64,000 bases of DNA from Nocardia sp. BMG51109 (GTDB lineage Bacteria; Actinomycetota; Actinomycetes; Mycobacteriales; Mycobacteriaceae): positions 1,860,001 to 1,924,000 of the forward strand of contig NZ_JAFQ01000004.1 of the NCBI RefSeq assembly GCF_000526215.1, read 5' to 3'. A model generated the notes under the pieces. It searched no databases. It saw only the letters and a program-made list of their open reading frames with translations, and was not told the DNA's origin. Shown piece by piece: positions 31,994 through 61,389 of this stretch. A program made the position numbers and the translations under genes. How positions within the stretch are numbered: position 1 is the first letter of the stretch; the number at the start of each line of letters is the position of its first letter.

Positions 31994-32026
31994 GTACAGA
32001 GTCGGATGTTGATAGGCTACGGCGCG

Positions 32027-32686
32027 ATGACCAAGCGTTCCTACAACCAGTACTGCGCGATCGCGGCGGCACTCGATGTGCTCGGTGAGCGCTGGACGCT
32101 GCTGATCGTGCGGAATCTCCTGCTCGGCCCGCAGCGGTTCAGCGACCTGTTGAACGAGCTCCCCGGCATCGGAACCGGGCTGCTCACCGAGCGTTTGAAA
32201 CACCTCGAACGGACCGGCGTCATCGCCAGAACCACGCTCCCGCCTCCGGCCGCGTCGACCGTCTACCAGCTCACACCCACCGGAGACGACCTGCGACCGA
32301 TACTGATCGGGCTCGGCCGCTGGGGGATGGCACAGCTCGGCGACCCCGACGACCGGTACATCGCCCCGGATCTGCTGGCCCTCGGCCTCCAGGCCCGCTT
32401 CGACCCCACCCGCGCGTCCGGCGCCGACGGCACCTACGAACTACGCATCGACGACCGCGCCTACCGCGTCGACATCGACCAGGCCGACATCACCGTGCGC
32501 GCCACCAGCACCGAAAACCCACGCGCGACCATCGCCACCGACACCGCTACCCTGGTCGACCTCAACACCGGCACCCGCACCCTCGCCGACGCCCTCGCCC
32601 ACGAATCCCTCACCATCGCAGGCGATCCCACCGCCCTCCCCGCCCTGGCCGGCGCATTCGCACTGGCCGATCCCGCCGCGACCTGA
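32027..32686 (+). CDS. HxlR family regulator with C-terminal SCP2-like domain
   Basis: This 219-residue protein has an HxlR winged helix (about residues 8-100: CAIAAALDVLGERWTLLIVRNLLLGPQRFSDL, where Cys10 is the usual conserved cysteine; then LTERLKHLERTGVI). A C-terminal sterol-carrier-type domain with YRVDIDQADITVRA is common in actinobacterial HxlR proteins. I used ATG at 32027; an in-frame ATG at 32006 is possible but overlaps the promoter. It is likely to control the divergent SnoaL and HD genes. Confidence 0.82.
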   Translation: MTKRSYNQYCAIAAALDVLGERWTLLIVRNLLLGPQRFSDLLNELPGIGTGLLTERLKHLERTGVIARTTLPPPAASTVYQLTPTGDDLRPILIGLGRWGMAQLGDPDDRYIAPDLLALGLQARFDPTRASGADGTYELRIDDRAYRVDIDQADITVRATSTENPRATIATDTATLVDLNTGTRTLADALAHESLTIAGDPTALPALAGAFALADPAAT

Positions 32687-41436: not shown

Positions 41437-43428
41437 TCATGCGCAGTCCCGGGCCGATTCGCCGGCGCGGCGAGCGATCGCGGCGGCCAGGTGCCCGGCG
41501 ATCCCCTCGATCGTGGGATGGTCCCACATGATCAGCGTCGGCACCGGGAACCGTAGCCACGCGGCGAGATCGGTGGCGACCTCGACGGCGTCGGCGGAGT
41601 TCATCCCGAACTCGGCGAACGGGGCCCGCACGTCGATCTCCTCGAGGGGCAGGCCGAACCGTTCGGCCACCCGGCGCTTCAGCCAGCTCTCGATCACCTC
41701 CGCGCTCAGATCGGCGGTCGGTGGTTCAGCCGGCCACCACTGGTGCTGAACCTCGAAAGCTCCGGACTGCAACATCTTTAGCGTTTCGGAACGCCTGATC
41801 TTGCCGCTCGACGTCTTCGGGATCTGGCCGGCCGTGATCAGCACGACGGCATGCACGCCGACGGCATGTTCGGTGGATATCGCCCGGCGGACGGCCGCGG
41901 CGGCGCCCTCGAGGTCGTCGCCGGCGTCCGGGCGCACCTCCTGCACGATCACGATGCGGTCGCCCTCGTTCTCCTCCTCCGAACTGATATCCACGGCCGC
42001 AACGCATCCCGGCCGCAGCGCCGGGTGGCTTTCCTCCGCGCTGCGCTCGATGTCCTGCGGATAGGTGTTCTGCCCGCGGATCACGATGACGTCCTTGCGG
42101 CGTCCGGTGACGAAAAGCTCTCCGTCATAGGTGAATCCGAGATCGCCCGTGCGCAGGAACGGCCCGTTGCCGTCGGCCGTGCAGGCGTCGAAGGCTTCGG
42201 CGGTCTCCAGAAGCCTTCCCCAGTAACCGATTCCGACGCTGTCGCCCGCCACCCAGATCTCGCCGACCCGGCCGGGACCGCATTCGGCGCCGGTGTCCGG
42301 GTCGACCAGCACGACGAGCTGCCCGTCGACGGCGCGCCCCGCGCTGACCAGCGTCGTCCCGAGGCCCTGCTCGCTCGCAGGCACCCCGCGGCCCTGTCCG
42401 AGCGCCGCCGAATCGAACCGCTCGACGCGCGGCGCGTCGGACACCGAACCGGTCGTCAGGACCAGGCCCTCGGCGAGTCCGTAGAGGTTCAGATGGGTGG
42501 AACTGCGGAAGCCGGCCACCGCGAAGGTTTTGTCGAAGCGGTCCAGGGTGGCGGCGCGCACCGGCTCGGCGGCGTTGATCGCGACCTGCCAGCAGCTCAG
42601 ATCGAGATCCTGCACCTCCCGCCGACCGGTACGGCGTGCGCACAGATCGTAGGCGAAGTTGGGGCCCGCCGTGGCCCGCACCCGATACCGCGAGATCGCC
42701 TGGACCCACCGGGCCGGCCGGCGCAGGAAGTCCAGCGGCGTCATCATGATGATCGGGTTCCGCCCGTACACCGGTTGCAGCAGGCCGAAGAACAGTCCGA
42801 GGTCGTGGTACTGCGGCAGCCAGCTCAGCACCCGCGCACCCGGCTCGACGAGCCGCGCGAACACCGAACCGCAGTGCAGCAGGTTGCCGTGGGTGACCAC
42901 CACGCCCTTGGGTGCGGAGGTCGAGCCGGACGTGTATTGCAGGAAGGCCGGGCTGTCACGGGTGACCGCGGGCTGGTGCCAGTCGGCGGCGCGCCCGTCG
43001 GGCACCTGTGACGTGACGATCCACGACAGCGTCGCCAGGGCGGGTTCCACCCCGACGAAGGCGTCGATGCGGGCGTACACGTCCGGGTCGGTGAGCGCCA
43101 CCTCGATCCCGGCGTCCGGAATGATGGTGTGCAGCTGGGAAACCGAGCGATTGAGCTCGGGCGGATAGGCGGGCACCGCGATGGCGCCCGCGTACAGGCA
43201 CGCGAAAAACGCCACCACATAGTCGATTCCGGCCGGATAGACCAGCAGCACGCGCTCCCCGGCCAGGACGCGGGCCTGTAGCTCACCCGCGATGGCGCGG
43301 GCGCGCAGGTCCAGCTGCGCCCAGGTCAGGGTCAGCTCCTCGGACTCACCGTCGGTCAGAAAGGTGTACAGCACGTCGTCGCCGCGTTCGTCCGCACCCG
43401 CCCGCACCAGATCGATATAAGAAGTCAT
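41437..43428 (-). CDS. Fatty acyl-AMP ligase (FAAL) with C-terminal acyl carrier domain
   Basis: This is a 663-residue protein. The FAAL part (about 1-570) activates a fatty acid as acyl-adenylate. Motifs are LQYTSGSTSAPKGVVVTHGNL, the FAAL-like SWLPQYHDLGLFFGLL, LYGLAEG, RTGDLGFTYDGELFVTGRRKD and KTSSGKIRRSE. A carrier domain (about 585-660) bears the phosphopantetheine serine Ser611 in FGMNSADAVEVA. In polyketide lipid pathways FAALs pass the acyl group to a carrier protein rather than CoA. It is the last gene of a four-gene operon with the ACP-KS-AT-ACP enzyme, the AfsA-like protein and an oxidoreductase. ATG at 43428 is used, 29 bases after the preceding stop. Confidence 0.92.
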   Translation of the reverse strand: MTSYIDLVRAGADERGDDVLYTFLTDGESEELTLTWAQLDLRARAIAGELQARVLAGERVLLVYPAGIDYVVAFFACLYAGAIAVPAYPPELNRSVSQLHTIIPDAGIEVALTDPDVYARIDAFVGVEPALATLSWIVTSQVPDGRAADWHQPAVTRDSPAFLQYTSGSTSAPKGVVVTHGNLLHCGSVFARLVEPGARVLSWLPQYHDLGLFFGLLQPVYGRNPIIMMTPLDFLRRPARWVQAISRYRVRATAGPNFAYDLCARRTGRREVQDLDLSCWQVAINAAEPVRAATLDRFDKTFAVAGFRSSTHLNLYGLAEGLVLTTGSVSDAPRVERFDSAALGQGRGVPASEQGLGTTLVSAGRAVDGQLVVLVDPDTGAECGPGRVGEIWVAGDSVGIGYWGRLLETAEAFDACTADGNGPFLRTGDLGFTYDGELFVTGRRKDVIVIRGQNTYPQDIERSAEESHPALRPGCVAAVDISSEEENEGDRIVIVQEVRPDAGDDLEGAAAAVRRAISTEHAVGVHAVVLITAGQIPKTSSGKIRRSETLKMLQSGAFEVQHQWWPAEPPTADLSAEVIESWLKRRVAERFGLPLEEIDVRAPFAEFGMNSADAVEVATDLAAWLRFPVPTLIMWDHPTIEGIAGHLAAAIARRAGESARDCA

Positions 43429-43457
43429 TGATTCAACACTCCGAGATCGGCGCCGGC

Positions 43458-44792
43458 TCATCCGCGGCGCAGTAACCGTTTCGCCGCTTCCTGGCCGGAC
43501 CGGAAACAGGCCTCGAGCGGCGCTCCCTTGACGTAGTCACCGGCGAGTTCGACGCCCGGCACGCCGGACAGTTCCGTGCGCACCTTGGACAGGAAATCGC
43601 CGTAGAACGGCAGGTAGGCGCAGTAGGCGGCATCCCAGATCCGGGTCACCGTATGTACCCTGACCAGCTCACCCTCGATGCCGAGCAGGCCCTTGATCAG
43701 TGTCTCGGCCTCGTCGACCCAGGCGCCGAGCTCGTCCGGGGTCGGCATCGGGCGCGCGGCTCGCCCGCTGAAGGTGTAGCGCACGATGTTCAGGTCGTTC
43801 ACGCCGTAGACGCCGGCATTGCTGCACCGCCCGCCGTCGAGCGCGATCGCGCGCACCACCGTGCCGAAGACCGGGCGATCGTATTCGATCACCGCGACCG
43901 CGGCCGGAAAGTACCGCACCTCGGCCAGCAGCTCGCTCAGCGCGGGCATCTCGGACTTCACGATGTCGGCCGCGGCGTAGGCCGGCGTGGCCACCACGAC
44001 CCCGTCGTAGGGCAGTTGCTCGGGCCCCTTGCCGTTGCCCGCGATCCGCACCCCGCTCACCTTCCCGTCCTGCACGACGAGCGATTCCACAGGTGAGTCC
44101 GTCCGCACCGCAACGTGTTTCGAGAACTCGTCGAGCGCGGGCTGAACGCCGTGGGTCAGCTGGTCGAAGGTGCTGGCCAGGCTCAGATTCACGTTGAAGT
44201 TGCCGAGGTACATCTCGTCCGGCTCGGCGCCGTTGAGCCGCACCGTCAGCGGCCGGAACATGTTGTTCGCCAGTGCCGAACCGAAATACGAGGTGAGCGG
44301 GCGGTGGTCGCGTCGGGCCCCGATCCGCGAGAACGTCGCACCGCCGAGGAACCGGTTGCTGTCGTCGCGCTTGATCCGCAACATCAGGATGCCCAGCTTC
44401 AGCAGGTCCAGCGGCGAACCGAGCCGGAGGATCTTGCGGACCAGATCCAATCGGCTGTTCTTACTGTCGAAGGTGATCAGCTTGCCGTCGATCAGCCGGG
44501 ACGTGTTGACGCCGAAGTACTCGAAGTCGTCCCCGGCGCCCATGGCGGTGAGGAAGGCGCGCAACTCGGTGTAGGTGCGGCTGATGTTCTTGCCGCCCAT
44601 CATGACCGGGCGGTCACCGAGGTGGTCGACCCCGAATCGCCCGCCCAGCACCGGGTTTCGCTCGAAGAGTTCCACCTTGTGCCCGGCCCGCTGCAGCTCG
44701 TGGGCCGCGGCGATGCCGGCGACACCGCCGCCGACCACGGCGTATTTCCTGGTCTTGTCGAGTCTCGTCACATTGTTCGTCGAGGTGGTCAT
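43458..44792 (-). CDS. FAD-dependent oxidoreductase (amine oxidase / phytoene desaturase-like)
   Basis: This 444-residue flavoprotein has an N-terminal dinucleotide fold KYAVVGGGVAGIAAAHELQR, then VELFERNPVLGGRFG. The C-terminal FAD contact GVELAGDYVKGAPLEACFRS is typical of the amine-oxidase/protoporphyrinogen oxidase/phytoene desaturase superfamily. It could desaturate or oxidise the polyketide-derived product. ATG at 44792 has AGGAG eight bases upstream. It lies 20 bases after the AfsA-like gene and 29 bases before the FAAL gene. Confidence 0.85.
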   Translation of the reverse strand: MTTSTNNVTRLDKTRKYAVVGGGVAGIAAAHELQRAGHKVELFERNPVLGGRFGVDHLGDRPVMMGGKNISRTYTELRAFLTAMGAGDDFEYFGVNTSRLIDGKLITFDSKNSRLDLVRKILRLGSPLDLLKLGILMLRIKRDDSNRFLGGATFSRIGARRDHRPLTSYFGSALANNMFRPLTVRLNGAEPDEMYLGNFNVNLSLASTFDQLTHGVQPALDEFSKHVAVRTDSPVESLVVQDGKVSGVRIAGNGKGPEQLPYDGVVVATPAYAAADIVKSEMPALSELLAEVRYFPAAVAVIEYDRPVFGTVVRAIALDGGRCSNAGVYGVNDLNIVRYTFSGRAARPMPTPDELGAWVDEAETLIKGLLGIEGELVRVHTVTRIWDAAYCAYLPFYGDFLSKVRTELSGVPGVELAGDYVKGAPLEACFRSGQEAAKRLLRRG

Positions 44793-44812
44793 GTCGTCGC
44801 TCCTGGTCGTTG

Positions 44813-45763
44813 TCACGCGCCGGCCGGATACGGCGCTAGTTCGATGCGGCACCCCGCGATGCGGGCGCCGAACTGATGGACGCCGAGTGCGACTCGGGCG
44901 CCGTCGGTGTCGGGGTCTGCCTCGGGCTCGGCGGTGAGCTCGACGGGCGCACCGAGTTCGGCGAACCCGGAGAAGGTGGCTTCGCAGCCGAGCACGGCGG
45001 CGACGGGCGAGGCGAGGAACCCGGCGCGGGCCGCGGCCACGACCGCCGCCTGCCGGTATCCCTCGATCAGCAACGGACCGGGCACGTGGTCGTAGGCGTG
45101 GTCGAAGAACGACGGATGCCGCTGATCGATCACCAGCGAGAACCCCCGTTCGGTCGTGCCGACGACGACGTTGCGCGGATCTCGGCGCCCGACCTGCTCG
45201 GGAGCCACCCGCTGCACCGGCTCGGCGGGCGCGTCCACGCCGGGCCGATTGTCCTGCTGCAGTGCGCGAATCTCCCGGTAGGTGTCAGCGGGGAACTGAA
45301 TACCGCTGCCCCGCAACGTCATCGCCTGCGAACCGGCGATGGTGAGCTGCGCCTCGAAGAACGTTCCCGCGGCGTCGCCGAAGGAGTCGAACATCCCGGC
45401 GTGCGCCCGGACGATGCCCTCCAGCGGTGCGTTACCCGTGTCGCGGAAGACACTGAGATCCTCGACCTCGAAATCCAGCTGCTGCAGGCTGGCCGGGGTG
45501 TTCTGCGGAACGTTCAGATACCGGTGGCCCACCACGATCATCGCCTGGCGGATCGCCTCCACCGTCGACAGCGGGTCGTGATAGTCCACCAGCCGGTCGA
45601 AATACAGCGAGTGCGCGCGCGGGATCTGGATCGCGGCCAGAAAGCCCTCCGATCCGTCCGTCGAGGTGTCGGCGACGAACACCTCGCCCAGCGCGCGGCG
45701 GTGCGCCAGCGAACACGGCACCGTGCGTTCGAAACTCAACATCGTCTCGGTGGCCTGACTCAT
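44813..45763 (-). CDS. AfsA-like protein (A-factor / gamma-butyrolactone synthase family)
   Basis: This 316-residue protein has two AfsA-type hot-dog repeats. The first starts HRRALGEVFVADTSTDGSEG, with PRAHSLYFDRLVDYHDPLST, then EAIRQAMIVVGHRYLNVP. The second contains RHPSFFDHAYDHVPGPLLIE, then GYRQAAVVAA. In Streptomyces, AfsA joins a beta-ketoacyl-ACP to dihydroxyacetone phosphate at the start of gamma-butyrolactone signalling synthesis. Here it is translationally coupled (4-base overlap) to a PKS that should make exactly a beta-ketoacyl-ACP. Whether the acceptor is dihydroxyacetone phosphate is not known. ATG at 45763 has GAAGAGG about seven bases upstream. Confidence 0.85.
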   Translation of the reverse strand: MSQATETMLSFERTVPCSLAHRRALGEVFVADTSTDGSEGFLAAIQIPRAHSLYFDRLVDYHDPLSTVEAIRQAMIVVGHRYLNVPQNTPASLQQLDFEVEDLSVFRDTGNAPLEGIVRAHAGMFDSFGDAAGTFFEAQLTIAGSQAMTLRGSGIQFPADTYREIRALQQDNRPGVDAPAEPVQRVAPEQVGRRDPRNVVVGTTERGFSLVIDQRHPSFFDHAYDHVPGPLLIEGYRQAAVVAAARAGFLASPVAAVLGCEATFSGFAELGAPVELTAEPEADPDTDGARVALGVHQFGARIAGCRIELAPYPAGA

Positions 45764-48700
45764 GGCGAAACCTCTTCCAGCACGGGTTCTTCGACTCCGG
45801 TGAGCAACCGCGCCGCGTCGCGCACCGTCGGATGGGTGATCAGGCTCTCCAGCGAGATCGACGTCCCGGCAACCTGATTCAGCCTGCTGCGCAGCTCCAA
45901 CATGGACAGCGAGGTCAGGCCGGCCTCGAACAGGTTCGCCTCGCCGGCGATCTCGCCGTCCAGCTCGAGCAGGATCTCCGCGAGCTGGGACCGCACCACG
46001 CCGGCGGCGAATTCGAGCCGTTCGGATTCGGGCAGCGCGGCCAGGTCGTCCCGGAACCGTTGTCCGGGATCGACGTCCGGGGCGCCGTCGGGCCGCTGCT
46101 CGACGGCCGGGAGGGCGGCGGTGGTCCCGGACCAGTAGCGCCGATGCTGGAAGGCGTAGGTCGGCAGGTCCACCACCCGCGCCCCGCGCCCCGCGTACAT
46201 CGCCGCCCAGTCCACGGTGGCGCCGGTGGTCCAGGCGGTGGCCACGGCGCGCAACAGGCTGCGCACCTCCGGTTGTCCGCGACGCAGTGCGGCGGCCACG
46301 GAATGCCCACCGTCGGTGAGGCATTCGTGGGTCATCCCGGCGAGCGCCTCGCCCGGCCCGGCCTCCAGGAACAGGGTCGCTCCGGCGTCGGCCAGCGTGT
46401 GCACGCCGTCGCGGAACAGCACGGCGTGGCGGGCCTGGGCGACCCAGTAGTCCGGGCTGCACAACTGCTCGGTGGTCGCGAATTCGCCGGTGACGTTGGA
46501 TACCACCGGGATCGCGGACGACCGCGGCCCGGCCGCGGCGACCACTCGCCGATACTCGTCGAGCATGCCGTCCAGATGTGGGGAGTGAAAAGCCCGCTCC
46601 ACCCGCAGCCGCTTGGTACGCCGCCCGCGCGCCCGCCAGTATTTTCCGATCGCGGTCACCGCCTCCTCGTCACCGGAGACGACCGTCGCGTTCGGGCCGT
46701 TGCTGGCCGCGATCGCCACTGTCGATTCCTGCCCGACGATCGATTCGGCGACCTCGACGTCGGAGGCCCGCACCGACAGCATGGCGCCGGGGCGCAGCCG
46801 CTGCATCAGCCGCCCGCGCGCGGCCACCACCGCGGCGGCATCCGCCGTCGGGAACACCCCGCCCGCGTGGGCGGCCGCGAGTTCGCCGATCGAGTGCCCG
46901 AGCAGGTAATCCGGTACCACTCCCCAGGACCGGAGCAGATGCAGCAGCGCGACCTCGACGGTGAACAACGCGGGCTGGGTGTAGTCGGTGCGATCCAGCA
47001 GGCCGGTGTCGTCGGTATCGAAGATCACCGCGCGCAGCGGGTGGTCCAGATGCCGGTCGAATTCGCCGCACAGCTCGTCGAAGACCCGGGCGAACTCCGG
47101 ATACGCCTCGTACAGTTGCCTTCCCATGCCCGCGGCCTGACTGCCCTGGCCGGGCAGCAGGATCGCGACCTTCGGCGCCGAGCCGGCCCGTCCCGTCACC
47201 GCGCCGGACGCGCCGGCGCCCTGCGCCAGCGCCGCGAGCCCGTCGGCCAGTTCCGTGCGATCCGCGACGACGAGCGCGGCGCGGCGGTCGAATCCGGTCC
47301 GGGTCGTGGCCGCGGACAGCGCGATGCTCGCGACGTCCGGCGCGTCGTCGGCCACGCAGGCCGCACGCAACCGCTCCGCCTGACCCCGCAGCGCACCGTC
47401 GGTCCGCGCGGACAGCACACACACCGACAACGCACCCTCGACCGAGTCACCGTCGGCGGCAACGGGTTCGGCCCATGCGGGATCGTACTCGAGAATCACG
47501 TGCGCATTCGTGCCGCTGATGCCGAACGAGGAGATCCCGGCCCGCCGGGGCCGGTCGCGCTCGGGCCACGGCCGCGACTCGGTCACCAGGCGGATGTGCC
47601 CCGCCGACCAGTCCACGTGCGGCGAGGGCGTGTCGACGTGCAGCGTGGGCGGCATCGCCGCGTGCCGCATGGCGAGGATCATCTTGATCAGGCCCGCGGC
47701 GCCGGCCGCCGACTGCGTGTGCCCGATATTGGATTTGATCGACCCGAGCAGCAACGGCTGCTCGGCCGGTCGCTGCCCGTAGGTCGCCAGCAGTGCCTGC
47801 GCCTCGATCGGATCGCCGAGTACCGTGCCCGTTCCGTGGCCCTCCACGGCATCCACATCCGACGCCGACAATCCGGCGTTCGCCAGCGCCTGCCGGATGA
47901 CGCGCTGCTGGGACAGGCCGTTCGGCGCCGTCAGCCCGTTCGACGCGCCGTCCTGGTTGGTCGCCGAGCCGCGGACCACGGCCGCGACGGGATGGCCGTT
48001 GCGCCTGGCGTCCGAAAGCCGTTCCAGCACCAGAACTCCCGCGCCCTCCGACCACGAGGTGCCGTCCGCCGCGGCGGCATAGGACTTGCAGCGCGCGTCG
48101 TACGCCAAACCCCGCTGCGCCGAGAAGAATACGTAGCCCAGCGGCGACATCGTCACGGACACACCGCCCGTCAGCGCCAGCGAGCATTCGCCCGACCGCA
48201 GCGACTGCGCGGCGTGATGCAGCGCCACCAGCGATGACGAGCACGCGGTATCGACGGTCACCGCCGGGCCCTGCAAGCCGAGGAAGTAGGCGATCCGGCC
48301 GGAGGCCACCGCGGGCATGTTCCCGGTCAGCAGATAGCTTTCGGCGCCCGCCAGGTCCGGGCCCGCGGCCAGCAGCGAGCGATAGCCCATATCGCTGAGT
48401 CCGAGAAATACGCCGGTCTCCGTGCCCCGCAGCGCAGCGGGATCGATCCGGGCCCGCTCGAAGGCCTCCCAGGCGAGTTCGAGCAGCATGCGCTGCTGCG
48501 GATCCGTCGCCAGCGCCTCCCGGGCCGAGATCCCGAAGAACCCGGCATCGAATTCCGCCGCGCCGTCGAGGAATCCGCCCTCTCGGACATACGACTTGCC
48601 CGGCACGCCCGGCTCCGGATCGTAGAGATCGTCGAGGGGCCAGCCCCGATCCGCCGGGAACCCCGTGATGGCATCGCGTCCCTCGGCGACCAGCCGCCAC

Positions 48701-49161
48701 AGGTCGTCGGGGGTGGCGACGCCGCCCGGGAAGCGGCAGGCCATCCCGACGATCGCGATCGGATCGTCCGCCGCCGCGGCCGGGTGCGCCGCGGCCGACG
48801 ACGCCGCCTCGGCCTCCGCACCGGCCGGCTCGCTCAGATGCGCGGCCAGCGCCTCGATGGTGGGGTGGTCGAAGATCACCGCGGCCGGCAGGGCGATCCC
48901 GGTCTCGGCCGCCACCCGGTCGCGTAATTCGACGGCGGTCCGGGAATCCAGCCCCAGATCGACGAAACCCGCTGTGACATCGATGTTTTCGGGGGCGAAG
49001 TCGCCGAGAACCGCATCCACCTGACGCCGGATCATCTCCATCAGCAGCCGTTGCCGCTCGCTCAAGTATCGGTGTTGCAACAGGTCGAGGGCGCGGCTCG
49101 CGGAATCAGGTGCGTCGGCCCCGGCATGCTCGTCCGCACCGGACAGTTCTGCATGCGACAT
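45760..49161 (-). CDS. Type I polyketide synthase, ACP-KS-AT-ACP, Pks13-like without thioesterase
   Basis: Domains of this 1133-residue protein in order: an N-terminal ACP (Ser73 in LGLDSRTAVEL); KS (about 133-560; DTACSSSL Cys307, EGHGTGTVLGD His442, KSNIGHTQSAAG His481); AT (about 665-960; GQGSQAAGMG, GHSIGE Ser757, and AFHS, which favours malonyl-CoA); and a C-terminal ACP with an unusual FEAGLTSLSML (Ser1084; Thr where Asp is normal). No KR, DH, ER or TE domain is present. The layout mirrors mycobacterial Pks13, which takes its acyl chain from the FAAL FadD32, but lacks the TE. The expected product is a beta-ketoacyl chain on the last ACP. It is first in the operon, followed by the AfsA-like gene. 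ATG at 49161 is used. Confidence 0.93.
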   Translation of the reverse strand: MSHAELSGADEHAGADAPDSASRALDLLQHRYLSERQRLLMEMIRRQVDAVLGDFAPENIDVTAGFVDLGLDSRTAVELRDRVAAETGIALPAAVIFDHPTIEALAAHLSEPAGAEAEAASSAAAHPAAAADDPIAIVGMACRFPGGVATPDDLWRLVAEGRDAITGFPADRGWPLDDLYDPEPGVPGKSYVREGGFLDGAAEFDAGFFGISAREALATDPQQRMLLELAWEAFERARIDPAALRGTETGVFLGLSDMGYRSLLAAGPDLAGAESYLLTGNMPAVASGRIAYFLGLQGPAVTVDTACSSSLVALHHAAQSLRSGECSLALTGGVSVTMSPLGYVFFSAQRGLAYDARCKSYAAAADGTSWSEGAGVLVLERLSDARRNGHPVAAVVRGSATNQDGASNGLTAPNGLSQQRVIRQALANAGLSASDVDAVEGHGTGTVLGDPIEAQALLATYGQRPAEQPLLLGSIKSNIGHTQSAAGAAGLIKMILAMRHAAMPPTLHVDTPSPHVDWSAGHIRLVTESRPWPERDRPRRAGISSFGISGTNAHVILEYDPAWAEPVAADGDSVEGALSVCVLSARTDGALRGQAERLRAACVADDAPDVASIALSAATTRTGFDRRAALVVADRTELADGLAALAQGAGASGAVTGRAGSAPKVAILLPGQGSQAAGMGRQLYEAYPEFARVFDELCGEFDRHLDHPLRAVIFDTDDTGLLDRTDYTQPALFTVEVALLHLLRSWGVVPDYLLGHSIGELAAAHAGGVFPTADAAAVVAARGRLMQRLRPGAMLSVRASDVEVAESIVGQESTVAIAASNGPNATVVSGDEEAVTAIGKYWRARGRRTKRLRVERAFHSPHLDGMLDEYRRVVAAAGPRSSAIPVVSNVTGEFATTEQLCSPDYWVAQARHAVLFRDGVHTLADAGATLFLEAGPGEALAGMTHECLTDGGHSVAAALRRGQPEVRSLLRAVATAWTTGATVDWAAMYAGRGARVVDLPTYAFQHRRYWSGTTAALPAVEQRPDGAPDVDPGQRFRDDLAALPESERLEFAAGVVRSQLAEILLELDGEIAGEANLFEAGLTSLSMLELRSRLNQVAGTSISLESLITHPTVRDAARLLTGVEEPVLEEVSP

Positions 49162-49271
49162 TTTGCCATCCTCGTATCGTTCGAAATCCGTAACGGCACC
49201 GTTCGGCGCGCCCCCGCATATCTGGTGTGCGATGAAATCCTATGGGCGTGTCGCACCGCACCACCCATCGA

Positions 49272-49281
49272 CCGGTAATCG
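49272..49281 (-). promoter_or_regulatory. Single SARP-type element facing the PKS operon
   Basis: Read leftward this is CGATTACCGG, identical to the right-facing element at 49333-49342. Eleven bases further on only a partial match (TGGGTGG) follows. It may be a half-site for the leftward PKS promoter. Confidence 0.45.
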
Positions 49282-49335
49282 TCCGGCCACAAGGAAAAAT
49301 CAACCGTCCGACCAGGTCAACCGGTGGGTGCGCGA

Positions 49336-49353
49336 TTACCGGCCGATTACCCG
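49336..49353 (+). promoter_or_regulatory. SARP-type direct repeat upstream of the FadD-like gene
   Basis: TTACCGG (49336-49342) and TTACCCG (49347-49353) repeat with an exact 11-bp period, embedded in CGATTACC twice. The second heptamer ends eight bases before TAGACT, a -10-like hexamer. SARP activators of Streptomyces bind heptamer direct repeats with 11-bp period placed eight bases before the -10, so this matches the rule. A SARP gene lies two kilobases away. Confidence 0.6.
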
Positions 49354-49481
49354 CCGACCGCTAGACTTGCGCGGTCAAGAATCGAAGACACGTATCCGAA
49401 TGTACGGATGTTTACCCTGGTTCGCTGATTAAAAACGTCGACGCCGACGAATTCGTCGCGAGCCGGAGATCAGAGGTTGTT

Positions 49482-51074
49482 ATGATTTCTCCGAAAGCAG
49501 CCGAATCCGTTGAAATTCCCGTCGATTTCGCCGGACTCTGCCGGCAACATGCCGAATCTCGCCCCGACGATATCGCCCTCGTCTGCGGCGACCGTTCGAT
49601 CGGTTACGCCGCGCTGCAACAGTCGTCCGCCCGGGCCGCGAACGCGCTACTAGCGGCCGGCCTGGGCGCCGGCGACCGGATCGCCTACATCGGCCGGGAC
49701 TCCGAGCACCTCTACGAGTTGCTGATCGCCGCCGCCGAGACCGCGACGGTGCTGATCCCGGTCAATCGGCTGCTCACCGCCGACGAACTCGCCCACATCC
49801 TGCTCGATTCCGGCTGCCGTCTGCTGTTCGTCGATGCCGCGACCGAATCGGTGGTGGTGCAGGCGCAGGAGCGGGCCGGCACCCGAATCGACGTGGTGCA
49901 CACCGATATTCCCGGCCGTCCGGGTGGCGGCTTCACCGACTGGCTCGACGGCCACCCCACCACCGATCCGAATATCGCTGTCGGACCGGACGATCCGCTC
50001 ATCCAGATGTACACCAGCGGCACGACCGGCCTGGCGAAGGGCGTGATGATCGGCCAGCGCAGCATCTACGCGGCCCGCGAGAGCCTGCTCGCACCCGAGG
50101 TGGACTGGTTCGACGTCCGCGACGACGACCGGCTCCTGGTCGCCATCCCGAGCTTCCACATCGCCGGCCTGGCCTGGGTGGTGCAGGGCCTGTTCGCCGG
50201 GGTGCCCGTGGTCCTGCTGCCGGAGTTCACGCCGGGCGCGGCCGTGGATCTCGTAGTCGCCCAGCGCATCACCGTCATGGTGGCGGTGCCGGTGATGTTC
50301 GCGCTGATGCTCGGCGAACCGGCGGCGACCGGCGAGGCGTTCACCCGGCTCCGTCTGGCGGCCTACGGCGGCTCCCCGATCCCCGAAACCCTGCTCGCCG
50401 AGTGCATGAAACGGTTCGACTGCGGATTCGTCCAGTTCTACGGCATGACCGAGACCGGCTGTTCGATCACCTATCTGCCGCCGGCCGACCACACCCCCGG
50501 CAACCCGCGGCTGCGCTCGGCCGGTTACCCCTGCCCCGGATTCGACATCACCGTCGTCGACACCGCGGGAGATCCGTTGCCGCCGGGCGAGATCGGCGAG
50601 ATCCTGGTGCGCAGCCCGGCGACGATGCTCGGCTACTGGAACAAGCCGGAGGTCACGGCGCACACCCTCGTCGACGGCTGGCTGCACACCGGCGACGCCG
50701 GCTGGCTGGACCCCGACGGATATCTGTTCCTGTGCGACCGCATCAAGGACATGATCATCGTCGGCGGCGAGAACGTGTACCCGGCGGAGGTGGAGAACGC
50801 CATCACCGCTCATCCCGCGGTGCGCGAGGCCGCCGTCATCGGCGTGCCCGACGAGCGCTGGGGCGAGGTGGTGCACGCCTTCGTGGCCGTGCACGCCGGG
50901 GCCGAGGTCACCGGCCGCGAGCTGGCCGCGTTCCTGCGCGACCGGATCGCGCCGTTCAAGCTGCCCCGCAAGTTCGACTTCGTCGACTACATCCCGCGCA
51001 ATACCACCGGAAAGATCCTGCACCGGGAGCTGCGGGACAGGTTCTGGGCCGGACGGGAGAGGGCCATCAACTGA
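49482..51074 (+). CDS. FadD-like acyl-CoA ligase (AMP-binding)
   Basis: This 530-residue ANL enzyme has the motifs IQMYTSGTTGLAKGVMIGQR, FVQFYGMTETG, LHTGDAGWLDPDGYLFLCDR, KDMIIVGGENVYPAEVE and NTTGKILHREL with the C-terminal catalytic lysine. It should make acyl-CoA through an acyl-adenylate. In contrast to the FAAL it has no carrier domain. AGAGG lies seven bases before the ATG. It is divergent from the PKS operon and carries the clearest SARP-like repeat in its promoter; it may supply or recycle the starter acid. Confidence 0.88.
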   Translation: MISPKAAESVEIPVDFAGLCRQHAESRPDDIALVCGDRSIGYAALQQSSARAANALLAAGLGAGDRIAYIGRDSEHLYELLIAAAETATVLIPVNRLLTADELAHILLDSGCRLLFVDAATESVVVQAQERAGTRIDVVHTDIPGRPGGGFTDWLDGHPTTDPNIAVGPDDPLIQMYTSGTTGLAKGVMIGQRSIYAARESLLAPEVDWFDVRDDDRLLVAIPSFHIAGLAWVVQGLFAGVPVVLLPEFTPGAAVDLVVAQRITVMVAVPVMFALMLGEPAATGEAFTRLRLAAYGGSPIPETLLAECMKRFDCGFVQFYGMTETGCSITYLPPADHTPGNPRLRSAGYPCPGFDITVVDTAGDPLPPGEIGEILVRSPATMLGYWNKPEVTAHTLVDGWLHTGDAGWLDPDGYLFLCDRIKDMIIVGGENVYPAEVENAITAHPAVREAAVIGVPDERWGEVVHAFVAVHAGAEVTGRELAAFLRDRIAPFKLPRKFDFVDYIPRNTTGKILHRELRDRFWAGRERAIN

Positions 51075-51079
51075 CGACA

Positions 51080-51096
51080 TGTCCTTGGTGAGGACA
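51080..51096 (+). terminator. Hairpin after the FadD-like gene
   Basis: TGTCCT-TGGTG-AGGACA is a 6-bp stem with a 5-base loop starting five bases after the stop codon and followed by GTTT. It is a short terminator candidate. Confidence 0.4.
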
Positions 51097-51213
51097 GTTT
51101 CCGGATCGTGTGCGTTGACCATTCGATGTCGGTATGAGGCCGCCTCGAAGCCACGTCCCTGTAACCCGAGTACAGCCATATCTCACGGCTGCGCAAGGCG
51201 AGAGGTGACGGTA

Positions 51214-52023
51214 GTGGAGTTCCGTGTTCTAGGTGAATTGGATGTCGTCGAAGACGGTGCGCAGATCCAGCTGGGTGGAGTCACCCGGCGCGCCGTCCTC
51301 GGCTACCTCCTACTGCACAACAACCAGGTGGTGCCCGCGAGTCAGCTGCGCGAGGCGCTGTGGAGCGGCGATTACCCGCCGACGGCCCGCAAGATCGTGC
51401 AGAACGCGGTGTCGGGGATTCGCCGCGTCCTCGCCGAGCACGAGCGGCCGGCGCAGACCACGCTGCTCACCCAGCCCCCGGGCTATCTGCTGCGGGTCGA
51501 CCCGGATGCGGTCGATCTGATGCTGTTTCGCCGGCTGGTCCGGATCGCCGCCGACGAACTGGCCTCCGGCGCGGCCGAACACGCGCGCGTCCGATTCCGC
51601 CAGGCCCTCGGGCTCTGGCGCGGCCGCCCGCTGGCCGACCTGGCCGAGAACGGCATCCTGTGGAGCGAGCTGACCGCCATCGAGGACGAGCGGCTCAACG
51701 CCTACGAGAACTGTTTCGACGCCGAACTGGCCAGCGGGCGGCATCGGGAGATCACCCCCGAACTGGAGATCCTGACGGTGGCGGTGCCGACCCGCGAAAC
51801 CTTCTGCAAGCAATACATGTTGGCGCTGTATCGATCCGGCCGGCAGGCCGACGCCCTCAAGGCGTTCCAGCGCACCCGCGGCGCCCTGGTCGAGCACCTG
51901 GGCATCGAGCCCGGCCTCGAGCTGCAGCGGCTGTACCAGATGATCCTGCGGCAGGATCCCGGGCTCGAGTTCCTTTCTCCCTCACAGCCTTCGGGTCCGT
52001 GGCGGCACATCGCGGCCGGGTAG
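51214..52023 (+). CDS. SARP family activator (first of two)
   Basis: This 269-residue protein has an OmpR-type winged helix (about 1-95: VEFRVLGELDVVEDGAQIQL, then VPASQLREALWSGDYPPTAR) and a bacterial transcriptional activator domain (about 100-250: LMLFRRLVRIAADELASG, then LALYRSGRQADALKAFQRTR). It has no ATPase domain, so it is a small SARP. GTG at 51214 has AGAGG eight bases upstream; GTG at 51205 is the alternative. SARPs switch on adjacent biosynthetic genes; 11-bp repeats suited to it lie at 49336, 53630 and 53692. The last 42 bases overlap the convergent aldehyde dehydrogenase gene. Confidence 0.88.
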   Translation: MEFRVLGELDVVEDGAQIQLGGVTRRAVLGYLLLHNNQVVPASQLREALWSGDYPPTARKIVQNAVSGIRRVLAEHERPAQTTLLTQPPGYLLRVDPDAVDLMLFRRLVRIAADELASGAAEHARVRFRQALGLWRGRPLADLAENGILWSELTAIEDERLNAYENCFDAELASGRHREITPELEILTVAVPTRETFCKQYMLALYRSGRQADALKAFQRTRGALVEHLGIEPGLELQRLYQMILRQDPGLEFLSPSQPSGPWRHIAAG

Positions 52024-53562
52024 CAGGCCGACCAGCCCGGCCAGCTGAATCATCAACCGCTGCCACTGGCCGTCGGTGAGGAACGGCGGGGTGTCCAGGT
52101 TCTTGAACCTGGTCGTCGCCACCGCCTGCGGTTCGGTGTACTTGAGCAGCCCCTCGACTCCGTTGCGGCGGCCGAGCCCGGAATCGCGCATGCCGCCCAT
52201 CGGGGCGCCCATGCTGCCGAAGGCCGGCACATAGCCCTCGTCGACGTTCACCGTCCCGGTGCGCAGCCGCCGCGCGATCTGCCTGCCGCGTGCCTTGCTG
52301 CCGGCCCAGACGCTGGCATTCAGCCCGTACTCGGAATCGTTGGCCCGCGCGACGGCCTCGTCGACGGTATCGACCGGGTAGATGGCGACGAGCGGCCCGA
52401 AGGTCTCCTGCCGCGCGCACTCCATCTCGTCGGTGACGCCGGTGAGCACCGTCGGCTCGTAGAACAACGGCCCGAGATCCGGTCGCGGGTTGCCGCCGGT
52501 AAGGACCTTCGCGCCCTTGGATTTCGCATCCGCGACGTGCTTGGCCACCCGCTCGAGCTGGTCGGCGGAGATCATGCTGCCCATCGCCACCGTGAAGTCG
52601 TAGGCTCCGCCGACCGTCATCGACTCGGTCGCGGCGACGAACTTCTCGGTGAACTCCTGCGCCACAGCCGCTTCGACGTAGATCCGCTCCATCGACAGGC
52701 ACAGCTGGCCGGCATTGCCGAAGCACGCCCGCAACGCGGCCCGGGCGACGGTGTCCAGGTCGGCGCCGGCCGCGACGATCATCGGGTTCTTGCCACCGAG
52801 TTCGGCGGAGAAGCCGATCAGCCTGCGGGCGCACTGCTCGGCCAGCAGGCGGCCCGTCGCCGTGGACCCGGTGAACATCAAATAGTCGCAGTTGCCGGCG
52901 ATTTCGGCGCCGACGACGGTGCCCTCGCCGGGCACCACCGCCAGCACGTCGCGCGGCAGGCCGGCGCGGTAGAGCAGTTCGGCGTTGGCCAGCAGCGAGA
53001 ACGGCGTCCGGGAGTCGGGCTTGATCACGGCGGCGTTGCCCGCGAGCAGCGCCGGTACCGCGTCCCCGATGGACAGGATCATCGGGTAGTTCCACGGGGA
53101 GATGAACCCGACCACCCCCTTGGGCTGGTGGTACACCACGGTGTGGACGAGTATCGGGAACAGTCCCGGGACCCGGTAGGGCCGCAGCAGCCCGGACGCG
53201 ACCCGCGCGTAGTACTGCGTGGCCAGCGCGAGACCGAGCACCTCCTCGTTCGCGGCCGCGCGCGACTTACCGGTCTCGGCCTGCAGCAGGTCCATCAGGA
53301 AGTCCCGGTTGTCCAGGATCAGCGTGCGGTACCGTTCGAAGACGGCGGCGCGCTCGCGCGGGCTCGTCTCGGCCCACCGGCCCTGTGCGGCACGGGCTTC
53401 GGCGAACGCCGCGGTGACGTCCTCGGCGTCGCCCATCGGGATCTCGGCGAGCGGATCCCCGGTGAACACCTCGTCGATGCGCCGTTGCGGCCGGCCGGCC
53501 GGGTCGCCGAGGGCGGCCAGGTCGCGTAGCCGGTCGAGGGTCTGACGTTGCGGGACAGGCAT
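51982..53562 (-). CDS. gabD2: Aldehyde dehydrogenase, succinic semialdehyde dehydrogenase GabD2 type
   Basis: This 526-residue enzyme is very similar in style to mycobacterial GabD2: RRIDEVFTGDPLAEIPMGDA near the N-terminus, FISPWNYPM, FTGSTATGRLLAE, ELGGKNPMIV with the catalytic Glu, GQLCLSMERIYV with the nucleophilic Cys, and ETFGPLV. It should oxidise an aldehyde to the acid with NAD(P). The true substrate may be a fatty aldehyde of the cluster rather than succinic semialdehyde. ATG at 53562 has AGGAG eight bases upstream. It is divergent from the SDR and preceded by three 11-bp repeats. Confidence 0.9.
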   Translation of the reverse strand: MPVPQRQTLDRLRDLAALGDPAGRPQRRIDEVFTGDPLAEIPMGDAEDVTAAFAEARAAQGRWAETSPRERAAVFERYRTLILDNRDFLMDLLQAETGKSRAAANEEVLGLALATQYYARVASGLLRPYRVPGLFPILVHTVVYHQPKGVVGFISPWNYPMILSIGDAVPALLAGNAAVIKPDSRTPFSLLANAELLYRAGLPRDVLAVVPGEGTVVGAEIAGNCDYLMFTGSTATGRLLAEQCARRLIGFSAELGGKNPMIVAAGADLDTVARAALRACFGNAGQLCLSMERIYVEAAVAQEFTEKFVAATESMTVGGAYDFTVAMGSMISADQLERVAKHVADAKSKGAKVLTGGNPRPDLGPLFYEPTVLTGVTDEMECARQETFGPLVAIYPVDTVDEAVARANDSEYGLNASVWAGSKARGRQIARRLRTGTVNVDEGYVPAFGSMGAPMGGMRDSGLGRRNGVEGLLKYTEPQAVATTRFKNLDTPPFLTDGQWQRLMIQLAGLVGLLPGRDVPPRTRRL

Positions 53563-53629
53563 CGCCGCACTCCTGCCGTCGAGCGATGGGATATCGATAA
53601 CATACTCGTAATTCCCTGTACACCAACAT

Positions 53630-53662
53630 CTTTCGGAAACCGTCCGGTAACCGCCGGGGAAC
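53630..53662 (-). promoter_or_regulatory. Triple 11-bp repeat facing gabD2
   Basis: Read leftward the units are GTTCCCCGGCG, GTTACCGGACG and GTTTCCGAAAG: three contiguous 11-mers sharing GTT, CC and a final G at the same positions. This is the spacing of SARP sites. The middle unit carries the TTACCGG heptamer also found at 49336. Confidence 0.65.
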
Positions 53663-53691
53663 TCGCGCGGGCGCCGGGGAGCCGGGCCGCC

Positions 53692-53724
53692 GTTACCGGA
53701 CGATTCCCGCGCGGTGACCGAAAA
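53692..53724 (+). promoter_or_regulatory. Triple 11-bp repeat facing the SDR gene
   Basis: Units GTTACCGGACG, ATTCCCGCGCG and GTGACCGAAAA follow each other without gaps. The first is the exact inverse of the unit at 53641-53651, giving a perfect 11-bp inverted repeat at the heart of the divergent region. The third unit can double as a -35 for TACTTT at 53739. Confidence 0.62.
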
Positions 53725-53776
53725 ACCTCGCGCAGCGGTACTTTCGACGTAAACAAACGGTTCGGTAGGGAGTGCG

Positions 53777-54628
53777 GTGCGGATATTGCCGGTGCGACAC
53801 GAGGTATCCGATACGGACGGATGGGCCGTGGTCACCGGTGCGTCCTCGGGAATAGGCGCGGCGCTGAGTTCTCAGCTCGCCGCCCGCGGCTTCCCGACCG
53901 TTCTCGTGGCCCGCCGAGCGGATCGGCTGGACGCGCTGGCGACCAGCATCCGCAACCGGTTCGGCACGAAGGTCGAGACCATTGCCTGCGACCTCGCCGA
54001 CCACGTGCACCGCGAGGCGCTGTGCGACGATCTGGCCCGGCGACGGGTGGCGGTGCTGTGCAACAACGCGGGCCTGGCCGTCTGCGGCGACGTGGCGGAC
54101 AGCGACCCGCGGGCGCAGCGCTCGCTCGTGCAGGTCAATGTGGTTGCCGCACAGGCGCTCACCTTGGCCGTGCTGCCCGCGATGATCGCCCGGCGGAGCG
54201 GCTCGATCCTGATGACCGGCTCCATCGCCGGCGTTCAGCCGGTACCCACCGCCGCCGCGTACGCGGCCAGCAAGGCGTTCGTGAACAATTTCGCCGAGGC
54301 GCTGCACGTGGAGCTGCAGGGTACGGGGGTCACCTGCACGCTGCTGTCGCCGGGACCGGTGCGCACCGAGTTCTATCAGGTCGGCGGCGTCACGCCGGAG
54401 CGGGAGGACTCCTACTCCGCGATGTCCGCCGACCTGGTCGCCCGGGCGGGGCTGGAGGGGCTGTTCGCGGGCCGGCCGACGGTCGTCCCCGGCCGCACGG
54501 CCAAGCTCCAGGCGTGGGGTGGCCGGAGCATCCCGCGCCCCTTGCTGTTTCCCGCGCTGCGCCACCTCTTCCTGCCCTGGCTCCGCGCCGGCCTGGCCGA
54601 GTCCGTCACCGATACGCGGCCGAAATGA
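53777..54628 (+). CDS. Short-chain dehydrogenase/reductase
   Basis: This 283-residue SDR has the cofactor motif VVTGASSGIGAALS, NNAG, and the active site MTGSIAGVQPVPTAAAYAAS followed by K. ARRADRL after beta 2 favours NADPH. The C-terminal LLFPALRHLFLPWLRAGL is hydrophobic, suggesting membrane contact or a lipid substrate. GTG at 53777 follows AGGGAG by six bases. It is divergent from gabD2 and shares the SARP-like repeats. A ketoreductase role toward the beta-keto product is possible. Confidence 0.85.
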   Translation: MRILPVRHEVSDTDGWAVVTGASSGIGAALSSQLAARGFPTVLVARRADRLDALATSIRNRFGTKVETIACDLADHVHREALCDDLARRRVAVLCNNAGLAVCGDVADSDPRAQRSLVQVNVVAAQALTLAVLPAMIARRSGSILMTGSIAGVQPVPTAAAYAASKAFVNNFAEALHVELQGTGVTCTLLSPGPVRTEFYQVGGVTPEREDSYSAMSADLVARAGLEGLFAGRPTVVPGRTAKLQAWGGRSIPRPLLFPALRHLFLPWLRAGLAESVTDTRPK

Positions 54629-54733: not shown

Positions 54734-54750
54734 AGCGGCCTACGGCCGCT
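54734..54750 (-). terminator. Hairpin over the LAL stop codon
   Basis: AGCGGCC-TAC-GGCCGCT is a perfect 7-bp stem with a 3-base loop that spans the stop codon of the leftward LAL gene. It also lies between the convergent SDR and LAL 3' ends. Confidence 0.4.
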
Positions 54751-57379: not shown

Positions 57380-57712
57380 ACCAACAAAGCCTAGCCGCAG
57401 AACGTACCTCCGACCATTGTCCGAGGTACGCCTCCCTAGGTAACACATAGGTTGAACTACCGATGCGCGGATCTCGTTGTACGCCAAGAATTACCAGTGT
57501 CGGGCAATGTGGCCGTGACGAAGAAGGATCTGGAGTACGACCTCGGTCCGCGGGGTGCCACGGAGGCTGTGGGGGCTCGTGTGGCAGGTCGGCTCACCGT
57601 TCACAACGATGCGACCGACAGATCCGCGTTCGTCGGCGGAGTGGTCACCGTTCCGTCGGCGGGCGCCCGGCACCGATACCTCGGTGCCGAGGTCGCCACC
57701 GAGGGAGGAAAA
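57380..57712. promoter_or_regulatory. Divergent region between the LAL and second SARP genes
   Basis: This 333-base region contains the palindrome at 57403-57430. The reading frame of the SARP is open upstream to 57452, but the extra residues do not look like SARP sequence, so I treat the region as non-coding. Confidence 0.4.
57403..57430. promoter_or_regulatory. Palindrome just upstream of the LAL gene
   Basis: CGTACCTC (57403-57410) and GAGGTACG (57423-57430) are perfect 8-bp arms with a 12-base spacer, 24 bases before the LAL start codon. The position suits a repressor or autoregulatory site. Confidence 0.5.
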
Positions 57713-58540
57713 TTGGTCGGCCGTCTGCATTTTCACGTTCTCGGCGCGCTGGAGGTTACGGGCCCGCGCACGGTGCCGATCACCAGCCATCGGGACAGGA
57801 TCGTCCTGGCCATGCTGCTGTTGCGGCCCAATCGGATCGTCTCCGTCGACCGCCTGGTCGACGGGGTCTGGAGCGATTCGCCGCCGTCCACGGCACGGCG
57901 CCAGATTCAGTCGTGCGTCGTGCGGTTGCGCAGAATCCTGCGCCCCGTCTCCGACCACGAGATCATCGTCACCGCCTATCCCGGATATCTGCTCCGGCCC
58001 GGTGTGCACACCTCGGATCATTGGGAATTCGTCTCGCGCATAGGAGATCTCACCGCCGCCGCCGAGTCCGGGCCGGTGGATTGGTCCGCCCTCGCCGACG
58101 ATATTCGCGGCGCATTGTCGTTGTGGCGCGGCCCGGCGCTGGAGGGAATAAATTCACCGGCCGTCGAAGCGGAGGCCGCCCGGCTGGAGGAAATGCGCCT
58201 GGCCGCCGTGGAGTGGCTGATGGATGTCGAGCTGACGGCCGGGCGCGACCACGAACTCATCGGCGAACTCATCCCGCTCATCGGCAGTCATCAATTCCGG
58301 GAGAGATTCTGCGAACAGTTGATGGTCGCCCAATATCGTGCCGGCCGACGCGTCGACGCGCTCGCGACATACCGGGAAGCCCGCACGCTGTTACTGGCGG
58401 AAATCGGCTCCGAACCCGGAGCGAATCTGCGCCGACTGCACGATGCCGTGCTGTGTGACGATCCGGCGCGGGTGCGCCTGGAGGCCACGTCACCGGGCCG
58501 GCGCAGCCGCTATCCGCGCGAATCGAGCTATGCCTGGTAG
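57713..58540 (+). CDS. SARP family activator (second of two)
   Basis: This 275-residue protein has a winged helix (LHFHVLGALEVTGPRTVPIT, then DRIVLAMLLLRPNRIVSVDR and RLVDGVWSDSPP) and an activator domain (LMVAQYRAGRRVDALATYRE). TTG at 57713 is supported by GGAGG four bases upstream; the open frame extends further up but looks non-coding. Codon 227 is TTA (58391-58393), a very rare codon in such genomes. In Streptomyces, TTA codons put SARPs under bldA control; relevance here is unproven. It is divergent from the LAL gene. Confidence 0.85.
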   Translation: MVGRLHFHVLGALEVTGPRTVPITSHRDRIVLAMLLLRPNRIVSVDRLVDGVWSDSPPSTARRQIQSCVVRLRRILRPVSDHEIIVTAYPGYLLRPGVHTSDHWEFVSRIGDLTAAAESGPVDWSALADDIRGALSLWRGPALEGINSPAVEAEAARLEEMRLAAVEWLMDVELTAGRDHELIGELIPLIGSHQFRERFCEQLMVAQYRAGRRVDALATYREARTLLLAEIGSEPGANLRRLHDAVLCDDPARVRLEATSPGRRSRYPRESSYAW

Positions 58541-61375: not shown

Positions 61376-61389
61376 AGGGAGCACCCCGA

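What the first reader, a model, noticed from the sequence alone, without database searches (positions are those of the whole stretch)
41437..49161. FAAL + Pks13-like KS-AT + AfsA-like protein in one operon: a beta-ketoacyl-to-butyrolactone-type pathway
The operon encodes an ACP-KS-AT-ACP enzyme without KR, DH, ER or TE, a coupled AfsA-like protein, an FAD oxidoreductase and an FAAL-ACP. Seen: the domains, active-site residues and the 4-base overlap of the PKS and AfsA-like genes. Known: FadD32 loads Pks13 through its N-terminal ACP, and AfsA uses beta-ketoacyl-ACP and dihydroxyacetone phosphate. Inferred: FAAL loads the N-terminal ACP, one malonyl extension gives beta-ketoacyl-ACP, and the AfsA-like enzyme offloads it in place of a thioesterase, giving a long-chain butenolide or butyrolactone, possibly a signal. 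I know of no described pathway that combines these three parts.
Basis: partly seen in the sequence, partly recalled or inferred. Interest (0 to 1): 0.88.

Follow-up and report, generated by a model that had tools for sequence, protein, structure and literature searches.

The report
Fatty-acid-fed polyketide enzyme with butenolide-type release
A Nocardia gene cluster pairs a one-step polyketide enzyme, fed by a fatty-acid-activating enzyme, with a separate A-factor-synthase-like protein that probably releases the product as a lactone, and related clusters occur in other actinobacteria.

Summary
The minus strand carries PKS (ACP-KS-AT-ACP, no KR/DH/ER/TE), AfsA-like, FAD oxidoreductase and FAAL-ACP genes, with 4-base overlaps at PKS/AfsA and FAD/FAAL. 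Conservation widens it to eight genes, 41437-54628. MAG SZAS-8 (L055) has the same four-gene order. The AfsA-like protein keeps all 32 residues conserved in at least 93% of 57 AfsA-type proteins. It lies in a clade apart from the butyrolactone-signal synthases sampled; clade members have a type I PKS within four genes upstream in 37 of 37 named loci with AfsA called. The nearest PKS module has a malonyl-type AT in 36 of 36 and room for only an ACP after it in 30; six Streptomyces loci have 422-495 residues there, a thioesterase in the one scanned. AfsA-type release of a PKS chain with dihydroxyacetone phosphate is published (gladiostatin, Burkholderia), so this is a new variant: stand-alone enzyme, actinobacterial cis-AT PKS, one module, FAAL-fed. 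The signal idea is unsupported: no receptor-type gene was found nearby. Product and acceptor are untested.

The parts
45760..49161 (-). Type I PKS, 1133 aa: ACP1 (res. 48-109), KS (133 to about 559), malonyl-type AT (669-981), ACP2 (about 1055-1120, estimated from the sequence); no KR/DH/ER/TE
   Evidence: Pfam; motifs; ACP comparison
44813..45763 (-). AfsA-like double-hotdog protein, 316 aa; proposed stand-alone chain-releasing phosphorylated-butenolide synthase
   Evidence: PF03756 two stretches; conserved residues; tree; model pLDDT 87 and hotdog fold matches
45760..45763 (-). 4-base overlap of PKS stop and AfsA start (probable translational coupling)
   Evidence: 4-base overlap also in L055, L058, L059, L061
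43458..44792 (-). FAD oxidoreductase of the protoporphyrinogen-oxidase/amine-oxidase fold, 444 aa; tailoring step unknown
41437..43461 (-). Fatty acyl-AMP ligase fused to an ACP, 674 aa
   Evidence: AMP-binding + PF23024 + PP-binding; FadD32, FadD23 and FadD28 structures score above the CoA ligases
49482..51074 (+). Acyl-CoA ligase (PF00501 + PF13193), 530 aa, conserved in the cluster
51079..52023 (+). SARP-family regulator (BTAD); start may be 51214
51982..53562 (-). Aldehyde dehydrogenase (PF00171), 526 aa
   Evidence: 63-67% in 4 loci
53792..54628 (+). Short-chain dehydrogenase, 278 aa
   Evidence: 54-59% to the SDR directly after the FAD gene in 8 loci (7 genomes; L042 and L090 are the same contig by length)

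Best explanation
An eight-gene specialised-metabolite cluster for an acyl butenolide or butyrolactone lipid. The FAAL adenylates a free fatty acid and loads it on its own ACP or on the N-terminal ACP of the PKS (inferred). The KS-AT extends it once with malonyl (malonyl-type AT and absence of a KR are seen in the sequence), leaving a 3-oxoacyl chain on ACP2. The separate AfsA-like protein, probably translationally coupled to the PKS, passes that chain to dihydroxyacetone phosphate; ring closure gives a 2-acyl-3-(phosphooxymethyl)butenolide, so AfsA does the work of a thioesterase (inferred from family chemistry and locus conservation). A general phosphatase and the FAD, SDR and ALDH enzymes then finish the molecule (order and chemistry unknown). 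The SARP probably regulates the cluster (inferred).
For: All domain sets and motifs are present. The same four-gene order occurs in L055 at 57-66% identity, with the same two 4-base overlaps. Of the 40 loci I dropped L093 and L094 (short, 39% matches); of the other 38, AfsA was called in 37, and 37 of 37 have a PKS within four genes upstream on the same strand; in L091, not called, PKS matches lie about 8 kb upstream. Among 12 loci with AfsA outside the clade (L043-L054) I see none, read by eye from the gene lists. Nearest PKS module: AFHS or GFHS with GHSxG (malonyl type, recalled) in 36 of 36 named loci with a PKS within three genes, and 123-180 residues after the AT in 30 of 36; 43 of 43 distinct terminal ATs likewise. 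32 of 32 conserved columns kept, 21 of them invariant in all 57 rows. The 40 PKS-linked AfsAs form one group, support 100/99. 8 of 8 cluster genes have homologues in the 62 loci compared, against 2 of 40 other called window genes. Precedent in vitro: the gladiostatin AfsA-like domain condenses 3-ketothioesters with DHAP (PMC7756379, passages).
Against: No biochemistry; acceptor and chain length unknown. Six Streptomyces clade loci (L075, L082, L085, L087-L089) have 422-495 residues after the AT of the nearest PKS, a thioesterase domain in L082, the only one scanned, so AfsA cannot be assumed to be the releasing enzyme throughout the clade. L067 has a separate thioesterase gene between PKS and AfsA, and genes of like size stand there in similar loci. 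The window protein scores below NCBI's ScbA/BarX cut-off. No phosphatase family was matched among the eight genes. L055 lacks the N-terminal ACP, so loading through ACP1 is not general. The malonyl control is weak: of 35 non-terminal ATs 16 are malonyl type, 18 unclear, 1 methylmalonyl. The tree program warns of long branches meeting, and 40 of its 57 rows were found with clade members.
Confidence: 0.6

Rival explanations
1. AfsA is not the releasing enzyme but acts one step later: the chain leaves the PKS by hydrolysis or transfer, the conserved acyl-CoA ligase reactivates it, and AfsA condenses the 3-oxoacyl-CoA with DHAP.
For: The acyl-CoA ligase gene has homologues in 7 loci (5 genomes). 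Six Streptomyces clade loci have a long tail on the nearest PKS, a thioesterase in L082, yet keep AfsA.
Against: No thioesterase domain in the window PKS or in L055, and by length none in the terminal module of 30 of 36 named loci. AfsA follows the PKS gene directly in 12 of 37 named loci, with a 4-base overlap in four.
Confidence: 0.17
2. AfsA makes an ordinary gamma-butyrolactone signal that regulates the cluster, and its place beside the PKS is regulatory rather than catalytic.
For: It is a PF03756 protein, and SARP-type regulators are typical targets of butyrolactone signalling (recalled).
Against: Separate group from the sampled signal synthases; PKS linkage in 37 of 37; no ScbR match in the window, best genome hit 35% identity about 1.1 Mb away (150 of 201 candidates scored). 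The four Streptomyces plasmid loci fetched have ScbR and an NAD(P)H-binding protein beside the synthase.
Confidence: 0.1
3. The hotdog protein uses another acceptor, or is a hotdog thioesterase or dehydratase-like enzyme, giving a different end group.
For: Foldseek's nearest solved folds are mostly acyl-ACP and acyl-CoA thioesterases, with some dehydratases; I know of no structure that fixes the DHAP-binding residues (one search found no solved sequence relative).
Against: All residues conserved across AfsA-type proteins are kept; in Pfam only PF03756 matches.
Confidence: 0.1

Closest known systems
Gladiostatin/gladiofungin PKS of Burkholderia gladioli with AfsA-like (PBS) release domain (PMC7756379, PMC7756420; passages read)
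   Same: An AfsA-like unit follows a last ACP bearing a 3-oxo chain in a PKS without a terminal thioesterase; expected phosphorylated 2-acyl butenolide
   Different: There the domain is fused to a large trans-AT assembly line; here it is a separate protein after a one-module cis-AT PKS with a FAAL gene. The gladiofungin paper also reports end-standing AfsA domains in orphan clusters of Gloeobacter, Paenibacillus and Ruminiclostridium
A-factor/GBL signal synthases AfsA, ScbA, BarX
   Same: PF03756 double hotdog; conserved residues kept
   Different: Separate group in the tree, below the NF041195 cut-off, no receptor gene found beside it, acyl chain probably supplied by a dedicated PKS
FadD32-Pks13 of mycolic acid synthesis
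   Same: FAAL plus PKS with N-terminal ACP, KS, AT, ACP
   Different: Below both family cut-offs; no thioesterase domain; the genome's own Pks13 and FadD32 are at C4:2082633-2090076
FAAL-like/ACP/AfsA gene strings of Nocardia without a type I PKS (L046-L051, L053, L054), which I recall as resembling the salinipostin spt cluster (not tested)
   Same: AMP-ligase, ACP-sized protein and AfsA in one gene string
   Different: No type I PKS seen; in L046, the one scanned, NDK-like, nitroreductase and PPDK-like genes instead

Membership tests
AfsA family (PF03756) | PF03756 match over the cut-off, two copies | tested here: met
   115.2 bits against 24, two stretches
AfsA family (PF03756) | Residues conserved across AfsA-type proteins kept | tested here: met
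   32 of 32 columns conserved in at least 93% of 57 sequences (40 of them, window included, of its own clade), incl. E69, R72, Q73, E234, R237, Q238
ScbA/BarX GBL synthases (NF041195) | Score over the curated cut-off | tested here: not met
   185.2 against 200 bits
ScbA/BarX GBL signalling system | Receptor (ScbR/ArpA) gene beside the synthase | tested here: not met
   No match of the ScbR of L144 in the window, 150 of 201 candidates scored; best at C4:810350, 35%. No TetR family among the 26 of 48 called window genes scanned, which cover 34883-62541
PBS-type PKS chain release | Last module leaves a 3-oxo chain (no KR) and has no thioesterase | tested here: met
   Pfam; 148 residues after the AT match
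PBS-type PKS chain release | AfsA domain fused to the PKS C-terminus | tested here: not met
   Separate gene overlapping by 4 bases
PBS-type PKS chain release | Condensation of ACP-bound 3-oxoacyl with DHAP | not testable with these tools
   Needs purified protein
Pks13 (NF040607) | Score over the cut-off | tested here: not met
   729.9 against 2100 bits; true Pks13 elsewhere, 2621 bits
FadD32 (NF038339) | Score over the cut-off | tested here: not met
   389.8 against 975 bits
Fatty acyl-AMP ligases | FAAL-type C-terminal domain (PF23024, recalled as typical) and FAALs among the nearest solved relatives | tested here: met
   PF23024 33.5 bits against 27, no PF13193; solved relatives in order: chains labelled polyketide synthase, saframycin synthetase B, acyl-CoA synthase, FadD32, FadD23, FadD28; the CoA ligase FadD13 far below

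The most novel reading that the evidence does not exclude
A large, apparently undescribed actinobacterial family of cis-AT polyketide pathways is released by a separate AfsA-type enzyme instead of, or besides, a thioesterase, and the window holds its smallest form: one module that turns a free fatty acid directly into an acyl butenolide lipid.
Probability: 0.5. Interest if true: 0.7.

Novelty: new variant of a known kind. Interest (0 to 1): 0.58.

Why it matters
If true, a C3 unit from glycolysis ends polyketide or fatty chains in many actinobacteria, through an enzyme family best known for signal synthesis; gene clusters taken for butyrolactone signalling would partly be biosynthetic. The window gives a compact system of few proteins in which FAAL loading, one extension and AfsA release could be rebuilt in vitro and used to make acyl butenolides from chosen fatty acids.

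Tried and rejected

Literature: ten searches gave no listing that I recognised as an actinobacterial PKS with AfsA release; two searches showed only 20 of 28 and 20 of 37 papers, and the library holds only openly licensed papers. Passages, not whole papers, were read of PMC7756379, PMC7756420, PMC5550956, PMC5735094, PMC7413640, PMC3848822 and PMC13307308; the rest were seen as listings. The Nocardia survey PMC7413640 speaks of mono-modular PKS families, but the passages shown do not mention AfsA.

Limits: genes in relatives come from my own codon-usage caller. The 62 loci include several from the same genomes. Two of the 40 loci (L093, L094) were dropped before the counts. In L085 and L088 the called terminal PKS gene shows no KS. 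Flanks of at most 10 kb make 14 of 37 a lower bound for FAAL genes, and the five Streptomyces FAAL-like hits among them rest on a best match of 33-35%. (6 of 394 genomes of the class, own genome included) scored only five candidates per genome; one search found a clade member in 26 of 150 Nocardia genomes at E 1e-50. Linkage and clade were not sampled independently, since the clade loci came from a search with clade members. R. fascians AfsA fell outside the other four signal synthases in the tree. Nocardia sp. NPDC050712 appears with AfsA (P0003) and FAAL (P0123), both with a longest contig of 573450, but a close FAD partner of that strain is not among the 120 rows shown.
Full report
Observation. 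Pfam gives ACP-KS-AT-ACP with no reducing or thioesterase domain, two PF03756 stretches, an amine-oxidase-type flavoprotein, and a FAAL with PF23024 and an ACP. PKS/AfsA and FAD/FAAL overlap by four bases. KS motifs are intact and the AT is of the malonyl type. The host is probably a Nocardia, since the nearest named relatives of the AfsA-like protein are. The genome has 8.79 Mb and three AfsA proteins.

Extent. I compared 48 called window genes with 62 loci around related AfsA genes (several from the same genomes). Eight neighbouring genes, 41437-54628, all have homologues there (at least 40% identity over 60% of the length); of the other 40 called genes two do. The four added genes are an acyl-CoA ligase, a SARP regulator, an aldehyde dehydrogenase and an SDR. 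The SDR matches the SDR that directly follows the FAD gene in eight loci, seven genomes (54-59%).

Relatives. Locus L055, a MAG called Actinomycetota bacterium SZAS-8, is the window's nearest row in the AfsA tree and has PKS, AfsA, FAD and FAAL-ACP in the same order with the same two 4-base overlaps; its PKS has no N-terminal ACP. In many other Nocardia loci the AfsA gene follows a KS-AT-ACP protein of about 1030-1080 residues, itself preceded by a larger PKS protein. In Nonomuraea, Microtetraspora, Streptomonospora and some Nocardia, a FAAL gene or its end stands before the PKS genes, and one more gene, a thioesterase in the one scanned (L067), stands before AfsA. The window's ACP1 is 58% identical to the N-terminal ACP of the large PKS protein before the terminal module of N. 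anaemiae and 42% to that protein's inner ACP. The window enzyme thus looks like such an N-terminal ACP joined to a terminal KS-AT-ACP (inference; in N. anaemiae further PKS genes lie upstream, so that ACP need not be a loading ACP).

AfsA. One search gave 40 loci; I dropped two short matches (L093, L094). Of the 38 left (L055-L092) AfsA was called in 37; all 37 have a PKS within four genes upstream on the same strand, 12 directly adjacent, 17 have the FAD gene within three genes downstream, and at least 14 a FAAL-like gene. In the twelve loci with AfsA outside this clade (L043-L054) I see no type I PKS upstream (read by eye). The tree of 57 proteins puts the 40 PKS-linked ones in one group (100/99), apart from four Streptomyces plasmid proteins annotated as signal synthases, one of Rhodococcus, eight of FAAL-ACP-AfsA strings and three of loci with free-standing KS genes; the program warns of long branches. 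All 32 columns conserved in at least 93% of rows are kept in the window protein, 21 of them invariant. The model (pLDDT 87) is a double hotdog.

Terminal module. In the 36 named loci with a PKS within three genes, the AT of that PKS carries GHSxG with AFHS or GFHS in 36, and 30 have only 123-180 residues after it. Six Streptomyces loci have 422-495 residues there, a thioesterase domain in L082, the one scanned. A CH2 between two carbonyls is what AfsA chemistry needs (family knowledge), so a malonyl AT without a KR fits; but upstream ATs are also often malonyl (16 of 35, 18 unclear, 1 methylmalonyl), so this is weak support.

Mechanism. Shown by sequence: domains, motifs, gene order, conservation. 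From published work, passages read: an AfsA-like PKS domain condenses 3-ketothioesters with DHAP to a phosphorylated butenolide (PMC7756379); deletion of such a domain stops gladiofungin formation, and end-standing AfsA domains occur in orphan clusters of other bacteria (PMC7756420); in A-factor-type pathways a reductase and a phosphatase, thought unspecific, follow (PMC5735094). Inferred: FAAL loading, one extension, release by the separate AfsA protein, tailoring by the FAD, SDR and ALDH enzymes.

Against the reading. Some relatives carry thioesterases; NCBI's signal-synthase model is missed by 15 bits; no receptor gene was found beside AfsA, which weakens the signal idea but not the release idea; nothing has been tested in vitro.

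Novelty. Ten searches showed no listing that I recognised as a description of this combination in actinobacteria; two of the lists were cut at 20 and subscription papers are not held. The release chemistry is known; the stand-alone, FAAL-fed, one-module form is a new variant.

Noticed in passing
L037 and L138 (G000:C4:8128000-8153599): The same genome has a second PKS-AfsA-FAD cluster with a much larger modular PKS upstream; its AfsA is about 54% identical to the window's.
   Followed up: partly
L046 (G000:C4:4535000-4554999); similar order in L047-L051, L053, L054: Third AfsA of the genome lies in a string: PPDK-like, FAAL-like 1209 aa, ACP-sized protein, NAD-binding_4, NDK-like protein, AfsA, nitroreductase. 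Resembles the salinipostin cluster as I recall it; not tested.
   Followed up: partly
L043, L044, L045: AfsA followed by a homologue of the window FAD protein (44-45%) in loci with free-standing KS genes; the AfsA-FAD pair is thus not confined to type I PKS clusters.
   Followed up: partly
L075, L082, L085, L087, L088, L089: Streptomyces loci: terminal PKS with a long tail (a thioesterase in L082), then two genes, AfsA, FAD and SDR, with a FAAL-like gene in five of the six. In L082 the two genes are KAS III-like and an FAD monooxygenase, and a desaturase follows.
   Followed up: partly
window 54740-58540: A LuxR-type AAA regulator (879 aa) and a second SARP-type regulator (347 aa) stand just beyond the cluster; no homologue passed the thresholds in the relative loci.
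   Followed up: no
window 58819-62541: ABC permease, ATPase, NMT1/THI5-like binding protein and a luciferase-like monooxygenase in a row; looks like a small-molecule uptake and oxidation set.
   Followed up: no
window 25549-28242: One protein joins a fumarate-reductase-type flavoprotein with C-terminal HEAT repeats.
   Followed up: no
window 32006-32686: HxlR-type regulator fused to an alkyl-sulfatase C-terminal domain.
   Followed up: no
G000:C4:8293743-8295221: A FAAL-like stretch with one in-frame TGA in the FadD32 search; possible pseudogene or sequencing error.
   Followed up: no
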